Source: Quadrisphaera sp. RL12-1S (GTDB lineage: Bacteria > Actinomycetota > Actinomycetes > Actinomycetales > Quadrisphaeraceae). From it: a stretch of DNA of 64,000 bases. Below are positions 52,728 through 61,045 of this stretch, piece after piece. The stretch covers positions 1 through 64,000 of the forward strand of contig NZ_JACNME010000011.1 in the NCBI RefSeq assembly GCF_014270065.1. Reading direction: 5' to 3'. Positions within the stretch are counted from its first letter, which is position 1. Every line of letters begins with the position of its first letter. Below the pieces are notes generated by a model. It saw nothing but the letters and a program-made list of their open reading frames with translations, was not told the DNA's origin and searched no databases. A program made the position numbers and the translations under genes.

Positions 52728-53894
52728 TCAGGTGGGGGTGCCGCCGGCGCGGCGCACGGCCGCATCGCGCTCGGCCTGGCGGTCCGCGACCGCCACGGGG
52801 TGGCGCGGGGAGCCACCGCGCTCGTCGTCGACCTCCCCGCCGCGGGCGAGCCGGAGCCGGCGGCCCAGGGCGACGTCCTCGGCGCGCTTGCGCGCGGCCT
52901 GGTCGCTCTTGCGGGTGTCGCGCGGCGGCAGCTGGAGCTCCTCCTCGGCCTCGATGCCCGCCTGGAGCTCGCGGCCGCGCTCCAGCTCGGCGTCGAGCTC
53001 GGCCCCGAACAGCAGCGCGAGGTTGGTGATCCACAGCCAGAGCAGGAAGACGACCACCGCGGCGAAGCTGCCGTACGTCTTGTCGTAGCTGCCGAAGTTC
53101 GCCACGTAGAGGCCGAACAGGCCCGAGGCGAGGGCCCACACGAGGATCGCCACCACGGCGCCGACGCTGGTCCAGGTCCACTTCGGGCGCTCGATGTTGG
53201 GCGTCACCTGGTAGAGCACGGCGACCACGACGACGACGATGAGCGCCAGCACCGGCCACTTCGCGATGCCCCAGGCGGTCACGGCGGCAGACCCGAGACC
53301 GATCACGTCACCCACGGACCGCGCCACGGGACCGGAGACCACGAGGATGATGAGAGCGGCGACCACGAGCACCACGGCGATGACGGTGACGAGCAGCTGG
53401 GTCGGGCGCATGACCCAGACGGGGCGGCCCTCGGTGATGCCGTAGATGCGGTTCATGGCGCGGGAGAAGGCACCGACGTAGCCCGAGGCCGACCACAGCG
53501 CCCCCAGGAGGCCGACGACGAGGCCGACGCCGGCGCCCCGGCTCTGCTGGAGCTGGCTGATGACGGGCTCGAGGTTGCTCACGACGTCCGCCGGCGCGAA
53601 GCCGCCGATGATCTCGAGCAGCGCCTGCGTGGTCTGCGGGCCCTGCCCGAGCACGCCGACCAGCGAGATGACGGCCACCAGGCCCGGGAACAGCGCCAGG
53701 ACGGCGTAGTGGACGAGGGCCGCGGCCAGGTCGAGGCAGCCGTCGCCGGTGAACTCGCGCACCGTCTTGCGCAGCACGTAGACCCACGAGCGCCGGGTGA
53801 GGTCGGTGGGGTCGTCCGGCTTGCGGGGGTCGTCGGGTGCGGGCGCGGTGCGCGCCTTCTGCGCGGTGCTCGCGTGGTCGACGTCGGAGCTCAT
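52728..53894 (-). CDS. YihY/BrkB-family membrane protein
   Basis: 388 residues. About six membrane helices of the YihY family, with the signature GCLDLAAALVHYAVLALFPGLVA near the N-terminus and ANFGSYDKTYGSFAAVVVFLLWLW later. Function unsettled despite historical RNase BN annotation. Long charged cytoplasmic tail (residues 320-388). ATG 53894, weak ribosome site. Confidence 0.9.
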   Translation of the reverse strand: MSSDVDHASTAQKARTAPAPDDPRKPDDPTDLTRRSWVYVLRKTVREFTGDGCLDLAAALVHYAVLALFPGLVAVISLVGVLGQGPQTTQALLEIIGGFAPADVVSNLEPVISQLQQSRGAGVGLVVGLLGALWSASGYVGAFSRAMNRIYGITEGRPVWVMRPTQLLVTVIAVVLVVAALIILVVSGPVARSVGDVIGLGSAAVTAWGIAKWPVLALIVVVVVAVLYQVTPNIERPKWTWTSVGAVVAILVWALASGLFGLYVANFGSYDKTYGSFAAVVVFLLWLWITNLALLFGAELDAELERGRELQAGIEAEEELQLPPRDTRKSDQAARKRAEDVALGRRLRLARGGEVDDERGGSPRHPVAVADRQAERDAAVRRAGGTPT

Positions 53895-54027
53895 GCCGTC
53901 TCGCCAGGCCCTTCCAGCGGTGGTGCGCCGTGGGCTCGACGTCGCGGCAAGTCTGCTGGGCGGGGGACGGACCTGCGACTCCAGGTGGGGCTGCCGCCCG
54001 TCACCGGTCGGGGGCAGACTCCGTGCT

Positions 54028-54774
54028 GTGTGCGGTCGCTACGCCAGCAGCAGGTCCGACGCCCAGCTCGTCGAGGACTACGCCGTCGACGCCGTGGTCG
54101 GGCCCGAGGTGGGCCCGTCCTGGAACGTCGCGCCCACCCAGCAGGTGCGCGCCGTGGTGGAGCGCGAGCCCCAGGACGGCACCGGCGCGCAGCGCCAGCT
54201 CCGCACGCTGCGCTGGGGCCTGGTCCCCTCGTGGGCGAAGGACCCCGCCGTGGGCTCCCGCATGATCAACGCCCGCGTGGAGACCGTCACGGACAAGCCC
54301 GCCTACAAGCGGGCCGCGGCCCGCAGGCGCTGCCTCGTGCCCGCTGACGGCTACTTCGAGTGGGAGCGCCGTCCCGCGCCCGACGGCTCCGGCAAGGAGG
54401 TCAAGGTGCCGCACTTCCTGCACGCCGCCGACGGCGGCCCGCTGACCTTCGCGGGCCTGTACGAGCTCTGGAAGGACCCGGCGGTCGCCGACGGTGAGGA
54501 CCCGTGGCTGTGGACGGTCACGGTGATCACCACGCAGGCGCGCGACGAGGCCGGCCGCATCCACGACCGCAGCCCCGTGGTGCTGCCCGCGGACTTCCAG
54601 GGCGACTGGCTCGACCCGGCGCTCACCGACCTCGACCTGGTCCGCCAGGTGCTGGACGCCGTGCCACCGCCGCAGCTGGCCACGCACGAGGTGGGGCGCG
54701 CCGTGGGCAGCCCCCGCGTCAACGGCCCCCAGCTGGTGCTGCCCCTGGAGCAGCTGGGGGCAGGGGGCGCCTGA
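54028..54774 (+). CDS. SRAP (HMCES/YedK) DNA-protein crosslink protein
   Basis: 248 residues. Shields abasic sites in single-stranded DNA by a covalent crosslink. The start must be GTG 54028 so that Cys2, the catalytic residue in VCGRYA, follows it. WNVAPTQQV, RMINARVETV, DGYFEWE (active-site Glu) and IHDRSPVVL (His) complete the site. A CAGACT box lies seven bases before the start. Confidence 0.95.
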   Translation: MCGRYASSRSDAQLVEDYAVDAVVGPEVGPSWNVAPTQQVRAVVEREPQDGTGAQRQLRTLRWGLVPSWAKDPAVGSRMINARVETVTDKPAYKRAAARRRCLVPADGYFEWERRPAPDGSGKEVKVPHFLHAADGGPLTFAGLYELWKDPAVADGEDPWLWTVTVITTQARDEAGRIHDRSPVVLPADFQGDWLDPALTDLDLVRQVLDAVPPPQLATHEVGRAVGSPRVNGPQLVLPLEQLGAGGA

Positions 54775-54813: not shown

Positions 54814-55662
54814 TCACTCGGCCAGGTTGGCGCTGATCACGTCCATCACCAGCGCCCTCGCCCGCGCGGTGGTCTCTCCGAGGCGGTCGGCGACCGCTGC
54901 CACCAGCCCCTCCACCAGCAGCGCCTGCGGGAGGCGCGAGGCGAGCGTGACCTCGTCGCGGAAGGTCAGCTCAGGGATGGTCACCACCAGCGCCACCGTG
55001 GCCGCCTGCGCGACGGGACTGCGCCCGAAGGACGTGACGGCCACGACGTCGGCCCCCGCCGCGGCGGCCGCGGCCACGGCCCGCAGCGACACCGCGCTCG
55101 TCCCGCTGCCGCTGATGACGAGCAGCAGGTCACCGGGTGAGAGGAGCCGGGCGCTGATCTGCTGGCCGATGGCGTCGCTCAGGACCTCGGCGGGACGCCC
55201 GACGCTGGTCAGCCGCGCCGCGGCGTCCTGCGCGAGCGGCGCCGAGACGCCGTTGCCCACCACCACCACGCGCCGGGCACCGGCGATGAGGGCCGTGGCG
55301 CGCTCGACGGCGTCGGCGTCCAGGAGCGCCAGCATGTCGGAGACCCGAGCGGCGAGCTGGGTGAAGACAGCGGCGACGATGGCCGCTGCGCCCTGGGGGT
55401 GCGGGAGCACCGCTGGGGCCGCAGCGGCGTCGCGCGCGAGCAGCACCCGCAGCTGCTGGTAGCCGGTGTAGCCCAGGCTCTGGCAGGTCCGCACCACGGT
55501 GGCGCGCGAGGCCCCGGCGAGGTCGGCGACCTGCTGGGAGCTCATCTCGACGATCTCCGCGGCGCGCTCGAGCAGCACCGCGGCCACGGCGCGCTCCGCG
55601 GGCAGCAGCGACGGCAGGAGGCTGCGGATGGTGGCGGCGACCGCCCCCGGCTGGTCCTTCAC
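54814..55662 (-). CDS. RpiR-family transcriptional regulator
   Basis: 282 residues. N-terminal HTH_6 (VAAVLLERAAEIVEMSSQQVADLAGASRATVV) and a SIS sugar-phosphate-binding domain (VVVVGNGVSAPLAQDA, LLLVISGSGTSAVSL). RpiR proteins sense phosphorylated sugars. Start GTG overlaps the stop of the phosphodiesterase (GTGA), making it the last gene of the operon it may control. A TGTTTCA-N16-TGAAACA site over the operon promoter is its likely target. Confidence 0.93.
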   Translation of the reverse strand: MKDQPGAVAATIRSLLPSLLPAERAVAAVLLERAAEIVEMSSQQVADLAGASRATVVRTCQSLGYTGYQQLRVLLARDAAAAPAVLPHPQGAAAIVAAVFTQLAARVSDMLALLDADAVERATALIAGARRVVVVGNGVSAPLAQDAAARLTSVGRPAEVLSDAIGQQISARLLSPGDLLLVISGSGTSAVSLRAVAAAAAAGADVVAVTSFGRSPVAQAATVALVVTIPELTFRDEVTLASRLPQALLVEGLVAAVADRLGETTARARALVMDVISANLAE

Positions 55663-56507
55663 GACACCACCGCCGCGGCGGGGCCCGTGGGACCGGCGGC
55701 CTCGGCGATGCTCCGGACCGCGGCGGCGTCGAGCGCGAAGACCTCCGCGCCGTCGTCCGGCCCGGGAGCCTCGACGAAGGTGACCCGCACCGCGCCGTCG
55801 TCCGACAGGTCGACCAGGTCCAGGCCCGCACCGACCACGGCCCGCTCCGTGCCGGCCGCGGCGAGGGGGTCGGAGTGGTTGGCCACCCCCGGCGAGACCA
55901 CCACGGGGATGCCCCGCACCTGCTGCACCATCCCGTGGTGGTAGTGCCCGGCGAGCACCAGGCGGACGCCGGCCGCCTCCAGCACGTCGAGGAGCGGCTC
56001 GGGCTCCACCAGCTCGAGCGCCCGGAGCAGGGTGCTGGCAGCAGGAACCGGCGGGTGGTGCAGCACCACGACGGCGCCGCCGGGGGCCGGCGGGGCGAGC
56101 GCCTCCGCGAGCCAGGTGAGCAGCCCTGGGGGCACGTGGCCGTAGCCGGCCCCGGGCACGGAGGTGTCGAGCGCCACGATCCGGTGGCCGCGCACGTCGT
56201 GCACGGCGCAGCGCGGCCCGAGGGCCAGCTCGAAGGCGGCGCGGTCGTCGTGGTTGCCGGGCACCGCCACCACCACCGCCCCGTGGTCCGCGGCGAAGCG
56301 GTCCACCCGCGAGCGCAGCGCGGCGTAGCTGGCCGGGCTGCCGTCGTCGGACAGGTCACCGGCGAGGACCACCGCGTCGAGGGGGCCCGCGGTCACCGCG
56401 CGCTGCAGCACCCGGTCGAGGGCGGCCGTGGTGTCGACGAGCCCGTGGTGCAGCGAGCCGTCACCGGTCAGGTGGGTGTCACTGAGGTGGAGCAGACGCA
56501 GCGTCAC
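55659..56507 (-). CDS. Class III phosphodiesterase (CpdA/GpdQ type)
   Basis: 282 residues. Calcineurin-like metallophosphoesterase with a complete two-metal site: LLHLSDTHL, VVLAGDLSDDG, VPGNHDD, VVLHHPPVP and LAGHYHHGM. Sequence style matches CpdA (cAMP) and GpdQ (glycerophosphodiester) enzymes. GGGGGAGG before GTG 56507 is a strong ribosome site. Situated in the phn operon, its substrate is presumably imported by the transporter. Reaction: hydrolysis of a phosphodiester. Confidence 0.9.
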   Translation of the reverse strand: MTLRLLHLSDTHLTGDGSLHHGLVDTTAALDRVLQRAVTAGPLDAVVLAGDLSDDGSPASYAALRSRVDRFAADHGAVVVAVPGNHDDRAAFELALGPRCAVHDVRGHRIVALDTSVPGAGYGHVPPGLLTWLAEALAPPAPGGAVVVLHHPPVPAASTLLRALELVEPEPLLDVLEAAGVRLVLAGHYHHGMVQQVRGIPVVVSPGVANHSDPLAAAGTERAVVGAGLDLVDLSDDGAVRVTFVEAPGPDDGAEVFALDAAAVRSIAEAAGPTGPAAAVVS

Positions 56508-57406
56508 GAGACCTCCCCCGCCGTGCGCTCGCGGCGCGTCCGCACGGCTGCGGCCAGGGGCAGGTCCCAGCGACCGGTGGTCACCCGGTGCCGCAGAGCG
56601 CCGCTGACCTGGTCGAGGGCCATCGTGATGACCACGACGACGACCATGAGCACGCCCACGACGTCCCACACCCGGAACTGGATGTTGTCGACGAGCATCT
56701 TGCCGATGCCGCCGGCGCCGATGAGCCCGAGGATGGCCGAGGCCCTCACGTTGATCTCGAACCGGTAGAGCCACAGGGCCAGCAGGTCGGGCAGCACAGC
56801 GGGCCAGACGCCCCAGCGCACCACCTGCCAGCGCGAGGCGCCGACGGCCCGAGCGGCCTCCACCGGTCCGCGGTCGGCGGCCTCGAACGCCTCGTACCCC
56901 CACTTGCCGAGGGTGCCGACGGAGCCGATGGCCAGCGCCAGTGCGCCGGTGAAGGCGGTCAGGCCGGTGACGGAGAGCATGAGGACGGCGATGACCACCT
57001 CGGGCACCGCCCGCAGGACCGCGAACACCGCCCGGACCGGCCACCGGACGAGGGCGGGTGCGAGGCCGTCGGTGGCCAGCAGCGACAGGGGCAGGGCCAC
57101 GACGACGCCGAGGACGGTGCCGAACCACGCCATGGCGACGGACAGCACCGTCGCGGACAGCGCGTCGGGCAGGTGCGTCCAGGCGGGCGGCAGCAGCATG
57201 AGGCCGAGCAGGTGCACGAGCCGACCCGGCAGCTCGGGCAGCGCGTCCCAGGAGACGTCGATCCCCCACACCGCGGCGGCCACGACGGCCACGACGACCG
57301 CCGTGAGCAGCCGCCGCACGAGGTGCAGGGGCCTGCGTGGACGCCCCGCCGCGCGCGGCGGGGCGGCGGGGGCGCTCGCCGGGCGCCGGTGCGCGTCGAC
57401 GCTCAC
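56504..57406 (-). CDS. phnE: Phosphonate-type ABC permease, second copy
   Basis: 300 residues, PhnE family, six or so membrane helices. Coupling loop EAARAVGASRWQVVRWGVWPA and the permease signature end FEINVRASAILGLIGAGGIG. About 100 residues of basic N-terminus precede the first helix. Start GTG overlaps the stop of the first permease. Forms a heterodimer with it. Confidence 0.9.
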   Translation of the reverse strand: MSVDAHRRPASAPAAPPRAAGRPRRPLHLVRRLLTAVVVAVVAAAVWGIDVSWDALPELPGRLVHLLGLMLLPPAWTHLPDALSATVLSVAMAWFGTVLGVVVALPLSLLATDGLAPALVRWPVRAVFAVLRAVPEVVIAVLMLSVTGLTAFTGALALAIGSVGTLGKWGYEAFEAADRGPVEAARAVGASRWQVVRWGVWPAVLPDLLALWLYRFEINVRASAILGLIGAGGIGKMLVDNIQFRVWDVVGVLMVVVVVITMALDQVSGALRHRVTTGRWDLPLAAAVRTRRERTAGEVS

Positions 57407-58214
57407 CGCAGCAGCCGCCGCCGGACGGTGGAGCTGAGCAGCTCCAGGAGCACGACCACGACGAGGACCTCCAGGATCACGGTGCTCAGGTAGTGGTACT
57501 GGTAGAAGGTCCGCACCTGGTCGATGAGCATGCCCAGCCCACCGGCGCCGACCAGGCCGATGACCGTGGAGGCGCGGACGTTGAGCTCCAGCACGTAGAC
57601 GGTCTGCGACAGCACGGTGGGTCCGACCTCCGGCAGCATCGCGCTGCGGTTGGCGCGCAGCCACGTGGCACCCGCCGCCAGCGCCGCCTCCTGGCCCCCC
57701 CTGTCGACGCCGTCGAGCGCCTCGGAGACGAGCTTGACGAGGATGCCGGTGTTGAACAGGACCAGCGCGAGCACGCCGGACAGCGCCCCGGTGCCCACCA
57801 CGGTGACGAAGACCGAGGCGAAGAGCAGGTCCGGGATGCTCCGCACGACGTCCATGACCGTCCGCACGACGCGCAGCACCGGGCCGTGGGGATCGGTGGC
57901 GCGGGAGGCGGCGAACGACAGGGGCACCGCCAGGACCACGCTCACCGCCGTCGCGATGACCGCCATCTGCAGGGTCTGCAGCAGCGCCGGCACGGTCCGC
58001 GGGATGAAGGAGTAGTCGGGCTGGACCAGCTGCACGAGCGTGCCCGTCGCGTTGCCGGCGTTGCGGACCAGGGCCGCGGGGTCCACCTGGACGACGACGG
58101 CCGACCAGGCGGTCACCACGACCACCCCGACGAGCACGAGGCCGGCCTTCCAGCCGCTGCGCACCCGGGCGGGGCGGCCCCTGACGACGGCCGTGGTGGG
58201 CGCGGGGGCGGTGG

Positions 58215-58218
<4 letters not shown>
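57403..58218 (-). CDS. phnE: Phosphonate-type ABC permease, first copy
   Basis: 271 residues, PhnE family. Coupling loop QEAALAAGATWLRANRSAML and LNVRASTVIGLVGAGGLG near the C-terminus. GTG overlaps the stop of the ATPase gene. Paired with the following PhnE in a transmembrane dimer. Confidence 0.9.
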
Positions 58219-59023
<805 letters not shown>

Positions 59024-59024
<1 letters not shown>

Positions 59025-60088
59025 CAGCCCAGTCCGATCGAGGCGGCGACGTCCGAGGTCTTCTGCAGCGCCGCCGGGTCGGCGTCGCGCAGGCCGGTGA
59101 TCTGGTAGATCGCGCTGAGGGCCTGCTGGCCCTCGGGGGTGGCGGCGTAGTCCTTCATGGCAGCTGCGACCTTGGTCTGCCACTCCTGGCTCAGACCGCT
59201 GGACAGCGAGACGCCGTCGTTGGGGATCGCGTCGGTGAGGGCGAAGACGACCACCTTCTGGCCGACGTCCGGGGTGTCCTTGGCCACCACGGAGCGGGCG
59301 TCCCAGTAGCTCGTGCCCACCTGCGCGTCCCCGTTGTAGACCGCCAGCACGCTCGCGTCGTTGGCGGTGACCTGGGTGACCTTGATGTCGCTGGAGACGT
59401 CGATGCCGGCCTTCTTCATCGCGGCGACCGGGAAGATGTAGCCGGCGGGCGAGGCGGGCTGCAGCAGCGAGACGGTGGCCCCCTTGATCTTGGGCAGCTC
59501 GTCGAGCCCGGCGGGACCCTCACCGCTCTGCGTGCCGTTGCAAAAGAGCATCCCGTCGGCGCCCGCCACCGGCTGGTCCGCGCAGTACTTCGCGGGGTCG
59601 TTGGTGAAGAACTGCGCCGCGTACGTGCTCTTGCCCTTGCGCTCGGACTGCAGGGCCGGCACGGCGCCGTACTTCTCGCAGGCCTGGCTCATCTGCAGGC
59701 TGGGCAGCATGCCGATCTGCGCCTGGCCGCTGCCGATGGCCTCGACGGCCGCCTGGTAGTCCTGCGTGATGACGCCCTTGACCGGGATGCCCAGTCGCTG
59801 GCTGAGCGCCTGCTCCAGCGGCTTGACGGTCTCGACCAGCTTGCTGGCGTCACCGGAGGGCACCAGGGCGAGGGTGAGCTGGGTGGGGGCGGAGGCCTTG
59901 TCGTCGGAACGGCCGGTGCAGACGGCGGCCGAGGACGCGCCGGCCGCGGGGCTGGTCGCGGCTGCGTCGGCCGCCTGCTGCGACGCGCCGCACCCGCTGA
60001 GGGAGGCGGTGGCGACCAGGGCGAGGGCCGCGGCACCGGCGAGGCCAGGGACGCGCGAGCGGGTGGTGCAGGAGGGGCGAGCGGGCAT
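59024..60088 (-). CDS. phnD: Phosphonate-type substrate-binding lipoprotein
   Basis: 354 residues. Signal peptide with lipobox LSGC near residue 33, then the PhnD/SsuA2-like fold: LTLALVPSGDASKLV, VKGVITQDYQAAVEAIGSGQ, IGMLPSLQM, and VGTSYWDARSVV. Binds phosphonate, phosphate ester or phosphite outside the cell. Cys-rich pairs (CEKYG, YCADQ, FCNGT) are notable. Ligand not decidable from sequence. Confidence 0.92.
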
Positions 60089-60187
60089 GGCGGAGTCCGT
60101 TCTGTCAGGGGTGATCGGGAGGAGGGGGAGGCAGAGGGGGGACAGGGGGGACAGGGGTGCGGAGCCGGGTGGGCCGGTGGCTGCGCC

Positions 60188-60949
60188 TCAGGCGCTGGAC
60201 GTGACCGCGAGCGGGTGGGCCCCCTGGAAGGCGGCGGGGTCCTCGGCCCAGGTGGTGATGCCGGCGTAGAGGCCTGGCAGGTCGGGCGCGGTGAGGTGGG
60301 CGGGCCCGGCGGCGTGGCCGAACCTGTCGACCAGGGCGGTCGAGCAGCCCGCGCGCAGGGGGGCGGCGAGGTCGTTGGCCCAGACGTCACCGACGGACAG
60401 CGCGCTCGCGGCCGGGCGGCCCCCCAGCAGCCGGGGCAGCAGGGCGTCCCACCCGGCGGGCTTGCCGGCGCTGGTGACGACCTCGTCCAGGACGTCGGTG
60501 AGGCCGAGCGCGACGAGCGCCTCGTCCACGCCCGTGCGGGGGGCGTTGGTCACGAGCACGCGGTCGACGCGGCCTGCGAGGCCGCGGAGGAGGTCCACGA
60601 GTCCCGGCGGGACCTCGACCTCGAGGCGCCCTGCGGCCAGAGCGGCCCGGCTGCTCGCGTAAGCGCGCTCGAGCACGTCGTCCGACGAGCCGGGAGCGAG
60701 GCGGGCTGCGATGTGGGCCACGGCCGCGTAGCCGTCGGCGTACCGGGGTGCCTCCGGGTGTCCGGAGAGGTAGCTCTCGAGCTGGTGGTGGAGCTCCCGG
60801 CCCGCGGTGGCACCGACCTCGGGGAGGCGCTCGCCGACGAGGTCGGCGGCGGCGGCGGCGTAGGCGAGCACGGGATCGTCGCCGGTGCAGACCGTGCCGT
60901 CGAAGTCGAGCAGGAGCAGCGGCCTGGCCGCGGCGGTGGAGCGGATCAC
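60188..60949 (-). CDS. HAD-family phosphatase
   Basis: 253 residues. Complete HAD core: LLLLDFDGTVC (Asp nucleophile), VLVTNAP, GKPAGWD (Lys), and VGDVWANDLAAPL. Unlike phosphonatase (PhnX) it has DFDGT rather than DxAGT, so a phosphomonoesterase is more likely than a C-P hydrolase. Start GTG 60949 lies seven bases after TAGCGT; first gene of the operon, 99 bases before phnD. Confidence 0.9.
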   Translation of the reverse strand: MIRSTAAARPLLLLDFDGTVCTGDDPVLAYAAAAADLVGERLPEVGATAGRELHHQLESYLSGHPEAPRYADGYAAVAHIAARLAPGSSDDVLERAYASSRAALAAGRLEVEVPPGLVDLLRGLAGRVDRVLVTNAPRTGVDEALVALGLTDVLDEVVTSAGKPAGWDALLPRLLGGRPAASALSVGDVWANDLAAPLRAGCSTALVDRFGHAAGPAHLTAPDLPGLYAGITTWAEDPAAFQGAHPLAVTSSA

Positions 60950-60956
60950 GCCGTGG

Positions 60957-61008
60957 ACGCTAGGCGTCCACGGTCGTTTGTTTCAAGAGGCTGCATCTGT
61001 GTGAAACA
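60957..61008 (-). promoter_or_regulatory. Promoter and inverted-repeat operator of the phn-like operon
   Basis: On the minus strand: -35 TTGAAA (60981-60986), 18-base spacer, -10 TAGCGT (60957-60962), and start codon at +1 (leaderless). An inverted repeat TGTTTCA (60979-60985) and TGAAACA (61002-61008), 16 bases apart, covers the -35. RpiR regulators commonly bind TGAAA-type inverted repeats, and the operon encodes one. Confidence 0.75.
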
Positions 61009-61045
61009 GGTGTTCATCCGTCGTTCACGGTGCCCGGGCCCCGGG

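What the first reader, a model, noticed from the sequence alone, without database searches (positions are those of the whole stretch)
54814..60949. Phosphonate-type transporter operon with a phosphodiesterase and a HAD phosphatase but no C-P enzyme
Seven minus-strand genes are packed with 1-4 base stop-start overlaps apart from one 99-base gap: HAD phosphatase, phnD, phnC, phnE, phnE, CpdA/GpdQ-type phosphodiesterase, RpiR regulator. Phosphonate operons normally carry C-P lyase, PhnX, PhnW or PhnA; none is here. The combination of importer, phosphodiesterase and phosphatase suggests uptake of an organophosphate diester or cyclic phosphate, cut first to a monoester and then to Pi, with the regulator sensing the phosphorylated intermediate. 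This is inference from order and motifs.
Basis: partly seen in the sequence, partly recalled or inferred. Interest (0 to 1): 0.75.

Follow-up and report, generated by a model that had tools for sequence, protein, structure and literature searches.

The report
Phosphonate-type importer operon for phosphate esters
A compact bacterial gene set pairs a phosphonate-type importer with two phosphate-cutting enzymes and its own switch, and most likely brings in a small organic phosphate whole and strips the phosphate off inside the cell.

Summary
In detail: seven minus-strand genes (HAD, phnD, phnC, phnE, phnE, phosphodiesterase, RpiR) with one 99-base gap and overlaps of 1 or 4 bases. It is a conserved cassette. 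In the 80 best of 286 relatives, HAD precedes phnD in 79 and the seven-gene order occurs in 23; in 52, phnE2 and rpiR lie too close for a phosphodiesterase. HAD and RpiR are thus core there, the phosphodiesterase a lineage-specific part. A palindrome, TGAAC-N5-KTTCA, lies upstream in 30 of 32 loci of this lineage (window counted) and once in 1.4 Mb elsewhere: a likely operator. The genome also holds a phosphonatase-like set, apparently with its own importer and GntR regulator. By alignment, the PhnD pocket keeps two acidic positions that hold the amine of 2-aminoethylphosphonate in E. coli PhnD, lacks the tyrosine cap of phosphite/phosphate binders and lacks the pocket histidine. Best reading: import and cytosolic hydrolysis of a small organophosphate ester, possibly an amino-alcohol diester such as glycerophosphoethanolamine. 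The substrate is unproven; overall fold similarity is closest to phosphite-binding PtxB.

The parts
60188..60949 (-). HAD-fold phosphatase, first gene, no signal peptide seen by eye (cytosolic). Invariant D15, D17, T134, N135, K163, D188, D193; cap residues D72, Y74, R101 invariant in 62 sequences; its only Lys is K163
   Evidence: (AF2 pLDDT 94.8)
59024..60088 (-). PhnD-type substrate-binding lipoprotein (C33 invariant in 43 of 43 aligned)
   Evidence: the only PF12974 match in the genome
58215..59024 (-). PhnC, ATPase of the importer
   Evidence: TIGR02315 over cut-off
57403..58218 (-). PhnE1, permease
   Evidence: TIGR01097 over cut-off
56504..57406 (-). PhnE2, permease
   Evidence: TIGR01097 over cut-off
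55659..56507 (-). Rv0805-type binuclear metallophosphodiesterase, no signal peptide seen by eye, with motifs DTH, GDLS, GNHD, HHPP, GHYH
54814..55662 (-). RpiR-family regulator (HTH_6 + SIS; SGSGTS loop)
61002..61016 (.). palindrome TGAAC-ACCTG-TTTCA upstream of HAD, predicted RpiR operator
60951..60973 (.). perfect inverted repeat CCGTGGACGC-CTA-GCGTCCACGG just before the HAD start codon; possible second operator

Best explanation
An ABC importer of the phosphonate (PhnT) family captures a small organophosphate ester with the lipoprotein PhnD and brings it in whole (inferred). Inside, the metallophosphodiesterase (found only in this lineage) opens a diester to a monoester, and the HAD phosphatase frees Pi (inferred from families and absent signal peptides). 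RpiR is thought to bind a phosphorylated intermediate in its SIS domain and to control the operon through the palindrome at 61002-61016 (the site is shown to be conserved; binding is inferred). The older system (HAD-PhnDCEE-RpiR) would handle a monoester, and the phosphodiesterase would widen it to diesters. The PhnD pocket suggests an amine-bearing ligand, for example phosphoethanolamine or glycerophosphoethanolamine (weakest step).
For: Conserved cassette: HAD in 79 of 80 loci, RpiR in 75 of 80, seven-gene order in 23 of 80. The HAD has one lysine only (K163, motif III); no cap lysine is among the conserved columns of 62 HADs, and 60 of 79 homologues have none between motifs I and II, 18 have one, 1 was not scored, so the Schiff-base lysine of PhnX (recalled) is missing. 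Operonic phosphodiesterases, with copies moved elsewhere in Humibacter RRB41 and downstream in Propionibacterium, split from six Rv0805-like paralogues (90/93). Phosphodiesterase presence clusters on the PhnD tree: 4 changes against a shuffled mean of about 21, none of 500 shuffles as low. PhnD: Y111, Y156, S213, D263 and D291 align with E. coli Y47, Y93, S127, E177 and D205; T128, S129 and H157 become P214, A215 and N243. E177/D205 hold the amine of 2-AEP, and a His and a Ser (not named; S129 is my assumption) coordinate the third phosphoryl oxygen (PMC12718374); their loss would suit a ligand with two free oxygens, such as a diester. A PtxB tyrosine, taken to be its cap, aligns with D291. 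The genome has PstS over its cut-off, a Pit-like gene and a separate phosphonate-type set. In L075 the importer is followed by a homologue of a solved phospholyase (5g4i, E 2e-152) and a kinase-like gene. Upstream palindrome: 30 of 32.
Against: No binding, growth or enzyme data. By sequence profile and by fold the nearest solved binding proteins are phosphite-binding PtxB; GpxB ranks 27th. N243/A215 also occur in clades without the phosphodiesterase (48 of 48 clade II, 8 of 8 group A), so the diester argument from the pocket is not clean. D263 is invariant in every group aligned, also in loci without HAD, so it may be structural. Four of 20 fetched loci have RpiR but no HAD match. The phospho-lyase neighbourhood is one genome, starts about 140 bases after phnE2 and may be a unit of its own; there the HAD-RpiR pair sits on another contig beside an Ugp-like transporter. 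L067 lacks the phosphodiesterase, and its genome gives only E 8e-5. SIS domains usually sense sugar phosphates (recalled), and the nearest HAD folds include N-acylneuraminate-9-phosphatase. In B. longum subsp. infantis the corresponding gene is labelled 5'-nucleotidase/apyrase (PMC8477406, table). The palindrome was devised on the loci in which it was then counted.
Confidence: 0.58

Rival explanations
1. A high-affinity phosphate (or phosphite) importer, as PhnDCE of M. smegmatis; the HAD and phosphodiesterase are general hydrolases carried along.
For: PhnDCE of M. smegmatis imports Pi under GntR-type PhnF (PMC7866108, passages); E. coli PhnCDE takes up Pi (PMC6469041, abstract); PtxB is the nearest solved relative by profile and by fold; 5 of 20 fetched loci carry PhnDCEE with neither HAD nor RpiR match.
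Against: The tyrosine cap, STS motif and His that bind Pi in Synechococcus PhnD1 (passages) are not kept here (D291, P214, A215, N243). The HAD is present in 79 of 80 nearer relatives. The genome has a PstS over its cut-off and a Pit-like gene. A SIS-domain regulator is an odd choice for Pi (inference).
Confidence: 0.17
2. A true phosphonate importer whose C-P enzymes lie elsewhere, e.g. the PhnX-like/TIGR03364 set on contig 1.
For: TIGR03351 263.4 bits (cut-off 218.9) and TIGR03364 372.6 (285.1) in the genome; the acidic pair D263/D291 matches the 2-AEP-binding pair of E. coli PhnD.
Against: That set seems to have its own ABC importer (a lipoprotein binding protein by the look of its sequence and a permease-like frame matching TIGR02141 at 62 bits, cut-off 182.6) and a GntR-family gene beside it. 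The palindrome upstream of this operon occurs at only two other places in the genome, neither near that set. The local HAD lacks a cap lysine.
Confidence: 0.12
3. Uptake of cyclic nucleotides, e.g. 2',3'-cNMP from RNA decay, opened by the Rv0805-like enzyme and dephosphorylated by the HAD.
For: The phosphodiesterase's best solved relative is Rv0805 (E about 1e-43), ahead of 2zo9 'phosphohydrolase' (1.7e-18; GpdQ, recalled); Rv0805 acts on cyclic nucleotides (recalled). A B. infantis table lists a 5'-nucleotidase/apyrase gene with the same partners.
Against: The PhnT-family ligands in the papers read are small; a nucleoside would need a much larger pocket (inference; no pocket volume was computed). 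The operonic enzymes split from Rv0805-like paralogues in the same or related genomes.
Confidence: 0.08

Closest known systems
GpxB-type glycerol-1-/3-phosphate importer (Phaeobacter, Marinobacter; PMC12718374)
   Same: PhnT-family binding protein and importer for a phosphate ester
   Different: GpxB has His199, Arg223 and Thr247; here the matching positions are N243, D263 and D291 (mapped through E. coli PhnD). Reported from Proteobacteria and Haloferacaceae; HAD, phosphodiesterase or RpiR partners are not mentioned in the sections read
E. coli PhnCDE
   Same: Family; Tyr47, Tyr93, Ser127 and an acidic pair where the 2-AEP amine binds
   Different: No T128, S129 or H157 equivalent; two PhnE genes; no C-P lyase; HAD, phosphodiesterase and RpiR instead of GntR (PhnF)
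M. smegmatis PhnDCE (Pi importer; PMC7866108 passages)
   Same: Actinobacterial PhnDCE
   Different: GntR-type PhnF regulator; no HAD or phosphodiesterase mentioned in the passages read
B. longum subsp. infantis genes ACJ51153-ACJ51159 (table in PMC8477406)
   Same: Same set by name: metallophosphoesterase, two permeases, ATPase, PhnD, RpiR, HAD, with consecutive accessions
   Different: Different order by accession; metallophosphoesterase labelled 5'-nucleotidase/apyrase; the passages seen only list them as a putative phosphonate/phosphite/phosphate porter. Sequences not compared here
Rv0805 / GpdQ class of metallophosphodiesterases
   Same: Fold and metal-ligand motifs
   Different: Separate orthologous group tied to this operon; below the CpdA and SpdA equivalog cut-offs

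Membership tests
PhnT (PhnDCE) importer family | PF12974/TIGR01098 binding protein, TIGR02315 ATPase, TIGR01097 permease over cut-off | tested here: met
PhnD, phosphonate-specific equivalog TIGR03431 | score over 261.1 bits | tested here: not met
   88.3 bits
Phosphonate catabolic operon | C-P lyase (PhnJ), PhnX, PhnW or PhnA in the operon or under its regulator | tested here: not met
   none in the operon; genome; a TIGR03351/TIGR03364 set exists elsewhere beside a GntR-family gene
Phosphonatase (PhnX) | catalytic lysine in the HAD cap (recalled) | tested here: not met
   no Lys in the window HAD's cap; 60 of 79 homologues have none between motifs I and II
GpxB glycerol-phosphate binder | His199, Arg223, Thr247 (PMC12718374) | tested here: not met
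   N243, D263, D291 by the paper's equivalence with E. coli E177/D205 and H157; no direct alignment to GpxB was seen
Phosphite/phosphate PtxB/PhnD1 type | capping tyrosine, STS motif and His | tested here: not met
   D291, S213-P214-A215, N243; overall similarity is nevertheless highest to PtxB
E. coli PhnD-type amine pocket | acidic pair E177/D205 | tested here: met
   D263/D291 in 81 of 81 (window + 80), by sequence alignment only
Calcineurin-like class III phosphodiesterase (Rv0805/GpdQ) | D-x-H, GDxx, GNHD, HH, GHxH metal motifs | tested here: met
CpdA / SpdA equivalogs | NF008359 over 225 bits; NF050112 over 400 | tested here: not met
   78.8 and 63.7 bits
RpiR regulator | HTH_6 plus SIS domain with ligand loop | tested here: met
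   S184-G187 conserved in at least 95% of 75
Any of the above | measured substrate | not testable with these tools
   needs purified proteins or mutants

The most novel reading that the evidence does not exclude
A phosphonate-type importer re-tooled for an amine-bearing phosphodiester such as glycerophosphoethanolamine: the diester enters intact, is cut to a monoester by a dedicated phosphodiesterase and then to Pi and (amino)alcohol by the HAD, with RpiR sensing the monoester. An older monoester importer would have become a diester importer by gaining one enzyme, while its binding protein does without the contacts to the third phosphoryl oxygen.
Probability: 0.22. Interest if true: 0.65.

Novelty: new variant of a known kind. 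Interest (0 to 1): 0.5.

Why it matters
PhnDCE genes are commonly annotated as phosphonate uptake. This operon family, found here in many actinobacterial genera, argues that a sizeable branch of these importers takes up phosphate esters instead. It comes with testable pocket residues, a predicted operator and a two-enzyme order, so the substrate question can be put directly at the bench.

Tried and rejected
HAD as phosphonatase: rejected, since no cap lysine is conserved. Phosphodiesterase as part of the ancestral operon: not supported, as it was not found in any of the 20 loci and is absent from 52 of the 80, where the phnE2 and rpiR matches lie at most 135 bases apart. Counts of changes on a tree cannot by themselves tell gain from loss. 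A wider RpiR regulon: the palindrome has only two other sites in the genome, one inside a predicted coding frame and one beside a DctA-like gene (label from the look of the sequence), so no regulon is claimed. Flanking genes as substrate clues (a selection of frames was scanned): primase, prenyltransferase, FAA hydrolase, GtrA and others, with no common theme; only L075 is suggestive. The aminotransferase-like cluster near some Microbacterium loci is only 27% identical to the L075 phospho-lyase and was dropped. A HAD-PhnD joint open frame in L041 was judged chance (only the PhnD part matches a family). Composition gave no sign of foreign DNA (GC 0.71-0.78 from 50000 to the end). A residue-level alignment to GpxB was not obtained (print other chains), so its residues are mapped by the paper's stated equivalence. 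Gene frames in fetched loci come from my own simple caller and BLAST, not from annotation.

Papers: PMC12718374 start of text and sections 5, 7, 8; PMC10284923, PMC7866108, PMC5700983, PMC10132767, PMC8477406, PMC5082522 passages; PMC6469041 abstract and outline; others as search listings. Searches for a report of this operon or its substrate: whose listings showed none beyond the B. infantis table (only the papers named above were opened).

Full report
OBSERVATION. Overlaps are 1 base (phnD/phnC) or 4 bases (the other four junctions), and HAD to phnD is 99 bases. PhnD carries a lipobox cysteine (C33, invariant in 43 of 43 aligned). By eye, the HAD and phosphodiesterase begin directly with their catalytic domains, so both should be cytosolic. 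This is the only PF12974 protein found in the genome.

CONSERVATION. A PhnD search of 149 genomes of the same order gave 32 with a match. I read 20 of the listed places, in 18 genomes: HAD upstream in 11 of 20, RpiR downstream in 14 of 20 (four of these without a HAD match), phosphodiesterase in 0 of 20. Five have neither HAD nor RpiR and follow a shared gene cluster whose one scanned member is dnaG. A scan of named genomes found 286 relatives, of which the tool kept the best 80. In these 80: HAD before phnD in 79, RpiR in 75 (four contigs end too early, one lacks it nearby), phosphodiesterase between phnE2 and rpiR in 23, and none in 52, where the two flanking matches are at most 135 bases apart. 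The 23 come from Leifsonia, Humibacter, Luteimicrobium, Nakamurella, Arthrobacter, Psychromicrobium, Microbacterium, several MAGs, and records labelled Sporosarcina and Acidobacteria. In the window's own taxonomic family, 0 of 12 other genomes have a PhnD match, so the operon is sporadic there (gained or lost).

THE PHOSPHODIESTERASE. Its best solved match is Rv0805 (2hy1, and 3ib7 'Icc protein' with the same aligned sequence; E about 1e-43), then 2zo9 (1.7e-18; GpdQ, recalled). All metal-ligand motifs are present. Its operonic orthologues (window + 23) fall with a copy 56% identical elsewhere in Humibacter RRB41, whose operon lacks the gene, and with the copy downstream in Propionibacterium. 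They split from six Rv0805-like paralogues, one from the window's own genome (support 90/93). That tree is rooted at the midpoint, the paralogue rows are matched segments only, and several rows are flagged as long branches. On a quick PhnD tree (long-branch warnings; four truncated loci left unscored, L075 scored as lacking it) its presence needs 4 changes against a shuffled mean of about 21, 0 of 500 shuffles as low. One gain with a few losses or moves is my reading; the count cannot tell gain from loss. L067 has no operonic copy, and its genome gives only E 8e-5.

THE HAD. AF2 gives pLDDT 94.8. The nearest solved folds are haloacid-dehalogenase-class proteins (several engineered) and N-acylneuraminate-9-phosphatase, at TM-scores of about 0.5-0.6. 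D15, D17, T134, N135, K163, D188 and D193 are invariant in 62 sequences, as are cap residues D72, Y74 and R101. The window protein has a single lysine, K163; of 79 homologues, 60 have no lysine between motifs I and II, 18 have one and 1 was not scored. A phosphonatase mechanism, which needs a cap lysine (recalled), is therefore unlikely.

THE BINDING PROTEIN. The AF2 model (pLDDT 88.4) is closest to PtxB, then ArrX, E. coli PhnD and others; GpxB ranks 27th. By sequence profile PtxB is also nearest. Aligned to E. coli PhnD (gene), Y47, Y93, S127, E177 and D205 become Y111, Y156, S213, D263 and D291; T128, S129 and H157 become P214, A215 and N243. These eight positions are identical in the 24 sequences with the phosphodiesterase. 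PMC12718374 (section read) states that E177/D205 coordinate the amine of 2-AEP, that these are Arg/Thr in GpxB, and that a His and a Ser bind the third phosphoryl oxygen (the Ser is not named; I take it as S129). PMC10284923 (passages) and PMC5700983 (passages) describe the tyrosine cap that excludes larger groups in Pi/phosphite binders; a PtxB tyrosine that I take to be this cap aligns with D291. So the pocket looks open and acid-lined and lacks third-oxygen contacts, as a diester with an amine tail would need. Against this: N243/A215 also occur in 48 of 48 clade II and 8 of 8 group A proteins, whose operons have no phosphodiesterase; six Rhodococcus proteins keep the His; and D263 is invariant even in loci without HAD. 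The pocket argument is suggestive only, and no pocket volume was computed.

REGULATION. RpiR has an intact SIS loop (S184-G187, at least 95% conserved in 75). A palindrome TGAAC-N5-KTTCA lies upstream of HAD in 30 of 32 loci of the window's clade, window included (61002-61016), in 0 of 48 clade II loci, and once in 1,400,530 bases elsewhere in the loci. I devised the pattern on these same loci and some of them are near-copies, so the clade II and elsewhere counts are the control, not an independent test. The genome has three such sites in all; the other two look unrelated. Clade II has GGACG-N3-CGTCC instead in 36 of 48, with 3 elsewhere. The window also has a perfect 23-base inverted repeat with similar half-sites but two bases more in the middle at 60951-60973. 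Binding by RpiR is predicted, not shown.

REST OF THE GENOME. Contig 1 (from about 537.5 kb) holds PPK2 (TIGR03707), a phosphonatase-like HAD (TIGR03351), a TIGR03364 oxidoreductase and PstS (TIGR00975), all over cut-off. It also has a GntR-family gene (best TIGR02325 PhnF, 100.4 bits, cut-off 156.8), a frame matching a molybdate-type permease (62 bits, cut-off 182.6), a Pit-like gene (103.4, cut-off 800), and a lipoprotein binding protein and further pst-like genes recognised only by the look of the sequence. Hence phosphonate and Pi uptake seem to have their own genes. PhnJ and PhnA are not detected; PhnX and PhnW models match only below cut-off.

A SUBSTRATE HINT. In Propionibacterium cyclohexanicum (L075) phnDCEE is followed, after about 140 bases, on the same strand by an amino-acid permease (the ethanolamine permease model TIGR00908 matches below cut-off), an APH-type kinase, a close homologue of a solved phospholyase (5g4i, E 2e-152; 6tor, ethanolamine-phosphate phospho-lyase, 5e-80) and an SDR. 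Next come a TetR-like frame on the other strand (by look) and the phosphodiesterase. The HAD-RpiR pair is on another contig, divergent from a transporter whose best but sub-cut-off matches are UgpB, UgpA and UgpE. This one genome links the importer to ethanolamine phosphate or glycerophosphate chemistry; it could be coincidence.

VERDICT. The operon is real, conserved and most likely an organophosphate-ester uptake and hydrolysis system, a variant within the PhnT family. GpxB (PNAS, December 2025) already shows that PhnD-type proteins can serve phosphate esters, and the component list appears in a Bifidobacterium table (PMC8477406). What this work adds is the anatomy across actinobacteria, the core/accessory split, the predicted operator and the pocket signature. 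The exact substrate stays open.

Noticed in passing
own genome G000:C1:537500-556000 (L165): A phosphorus island: PPK2, TIGR03351 PhnX-like HAD, GntR-family gene, TIGR03364 FAD oxidoreductase, importer-like frames, PstS and pst-like genes, Pit-like gene.
   Followed up: partly
L075 12663-17417 and L143 5332-10299: Propionibacterium cyclohexanicum: phospho-lyase gene group beside phnDCEE; HAD-RpiR pair on another contig, divergent from an Ugp-like transporter.
   Followed up: partly
window 60951-60973; upstream of HAD in clade II loci: Perfect 23-base palindrome whose half-sites (GTGGACGC) resemble the different palindrome GGACG-N3-CGTCC found upstream of HAD in 36 of 48 clade II loci; spacing differs by two bases.
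   Followed up: partly
L038, L043, L045, L047, L051: A second kind of locus: phnDCEE without HAD or RpiR match, downstream of a shared gene cluster whose scanned member (L038) is dnaG; in the three examined (L038, L045, L051) PhnD keeps the His (GGH) and the third loop Ser of classical pockets.
   Followed up: no
L068 and L069: Arthrobacter-like operons in records labelled Sporosarcina and an Acidobacteria MAG: transfer or mis-binned/contaminated sequence.
   Followed up: no
own genome G000:C8:85032-85046: TGAACACAAGGTTCA between a two-component-system-like gene pair and a DctA-like carrier gene (labels from the look of the sequence); probably another regulator's site.
   Followed up: no
window 53797-54774 (+): SRAP/SOS-response-associated peptidase gene just beyond the end of the operon, on the opposite strand.
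   Followed up: no
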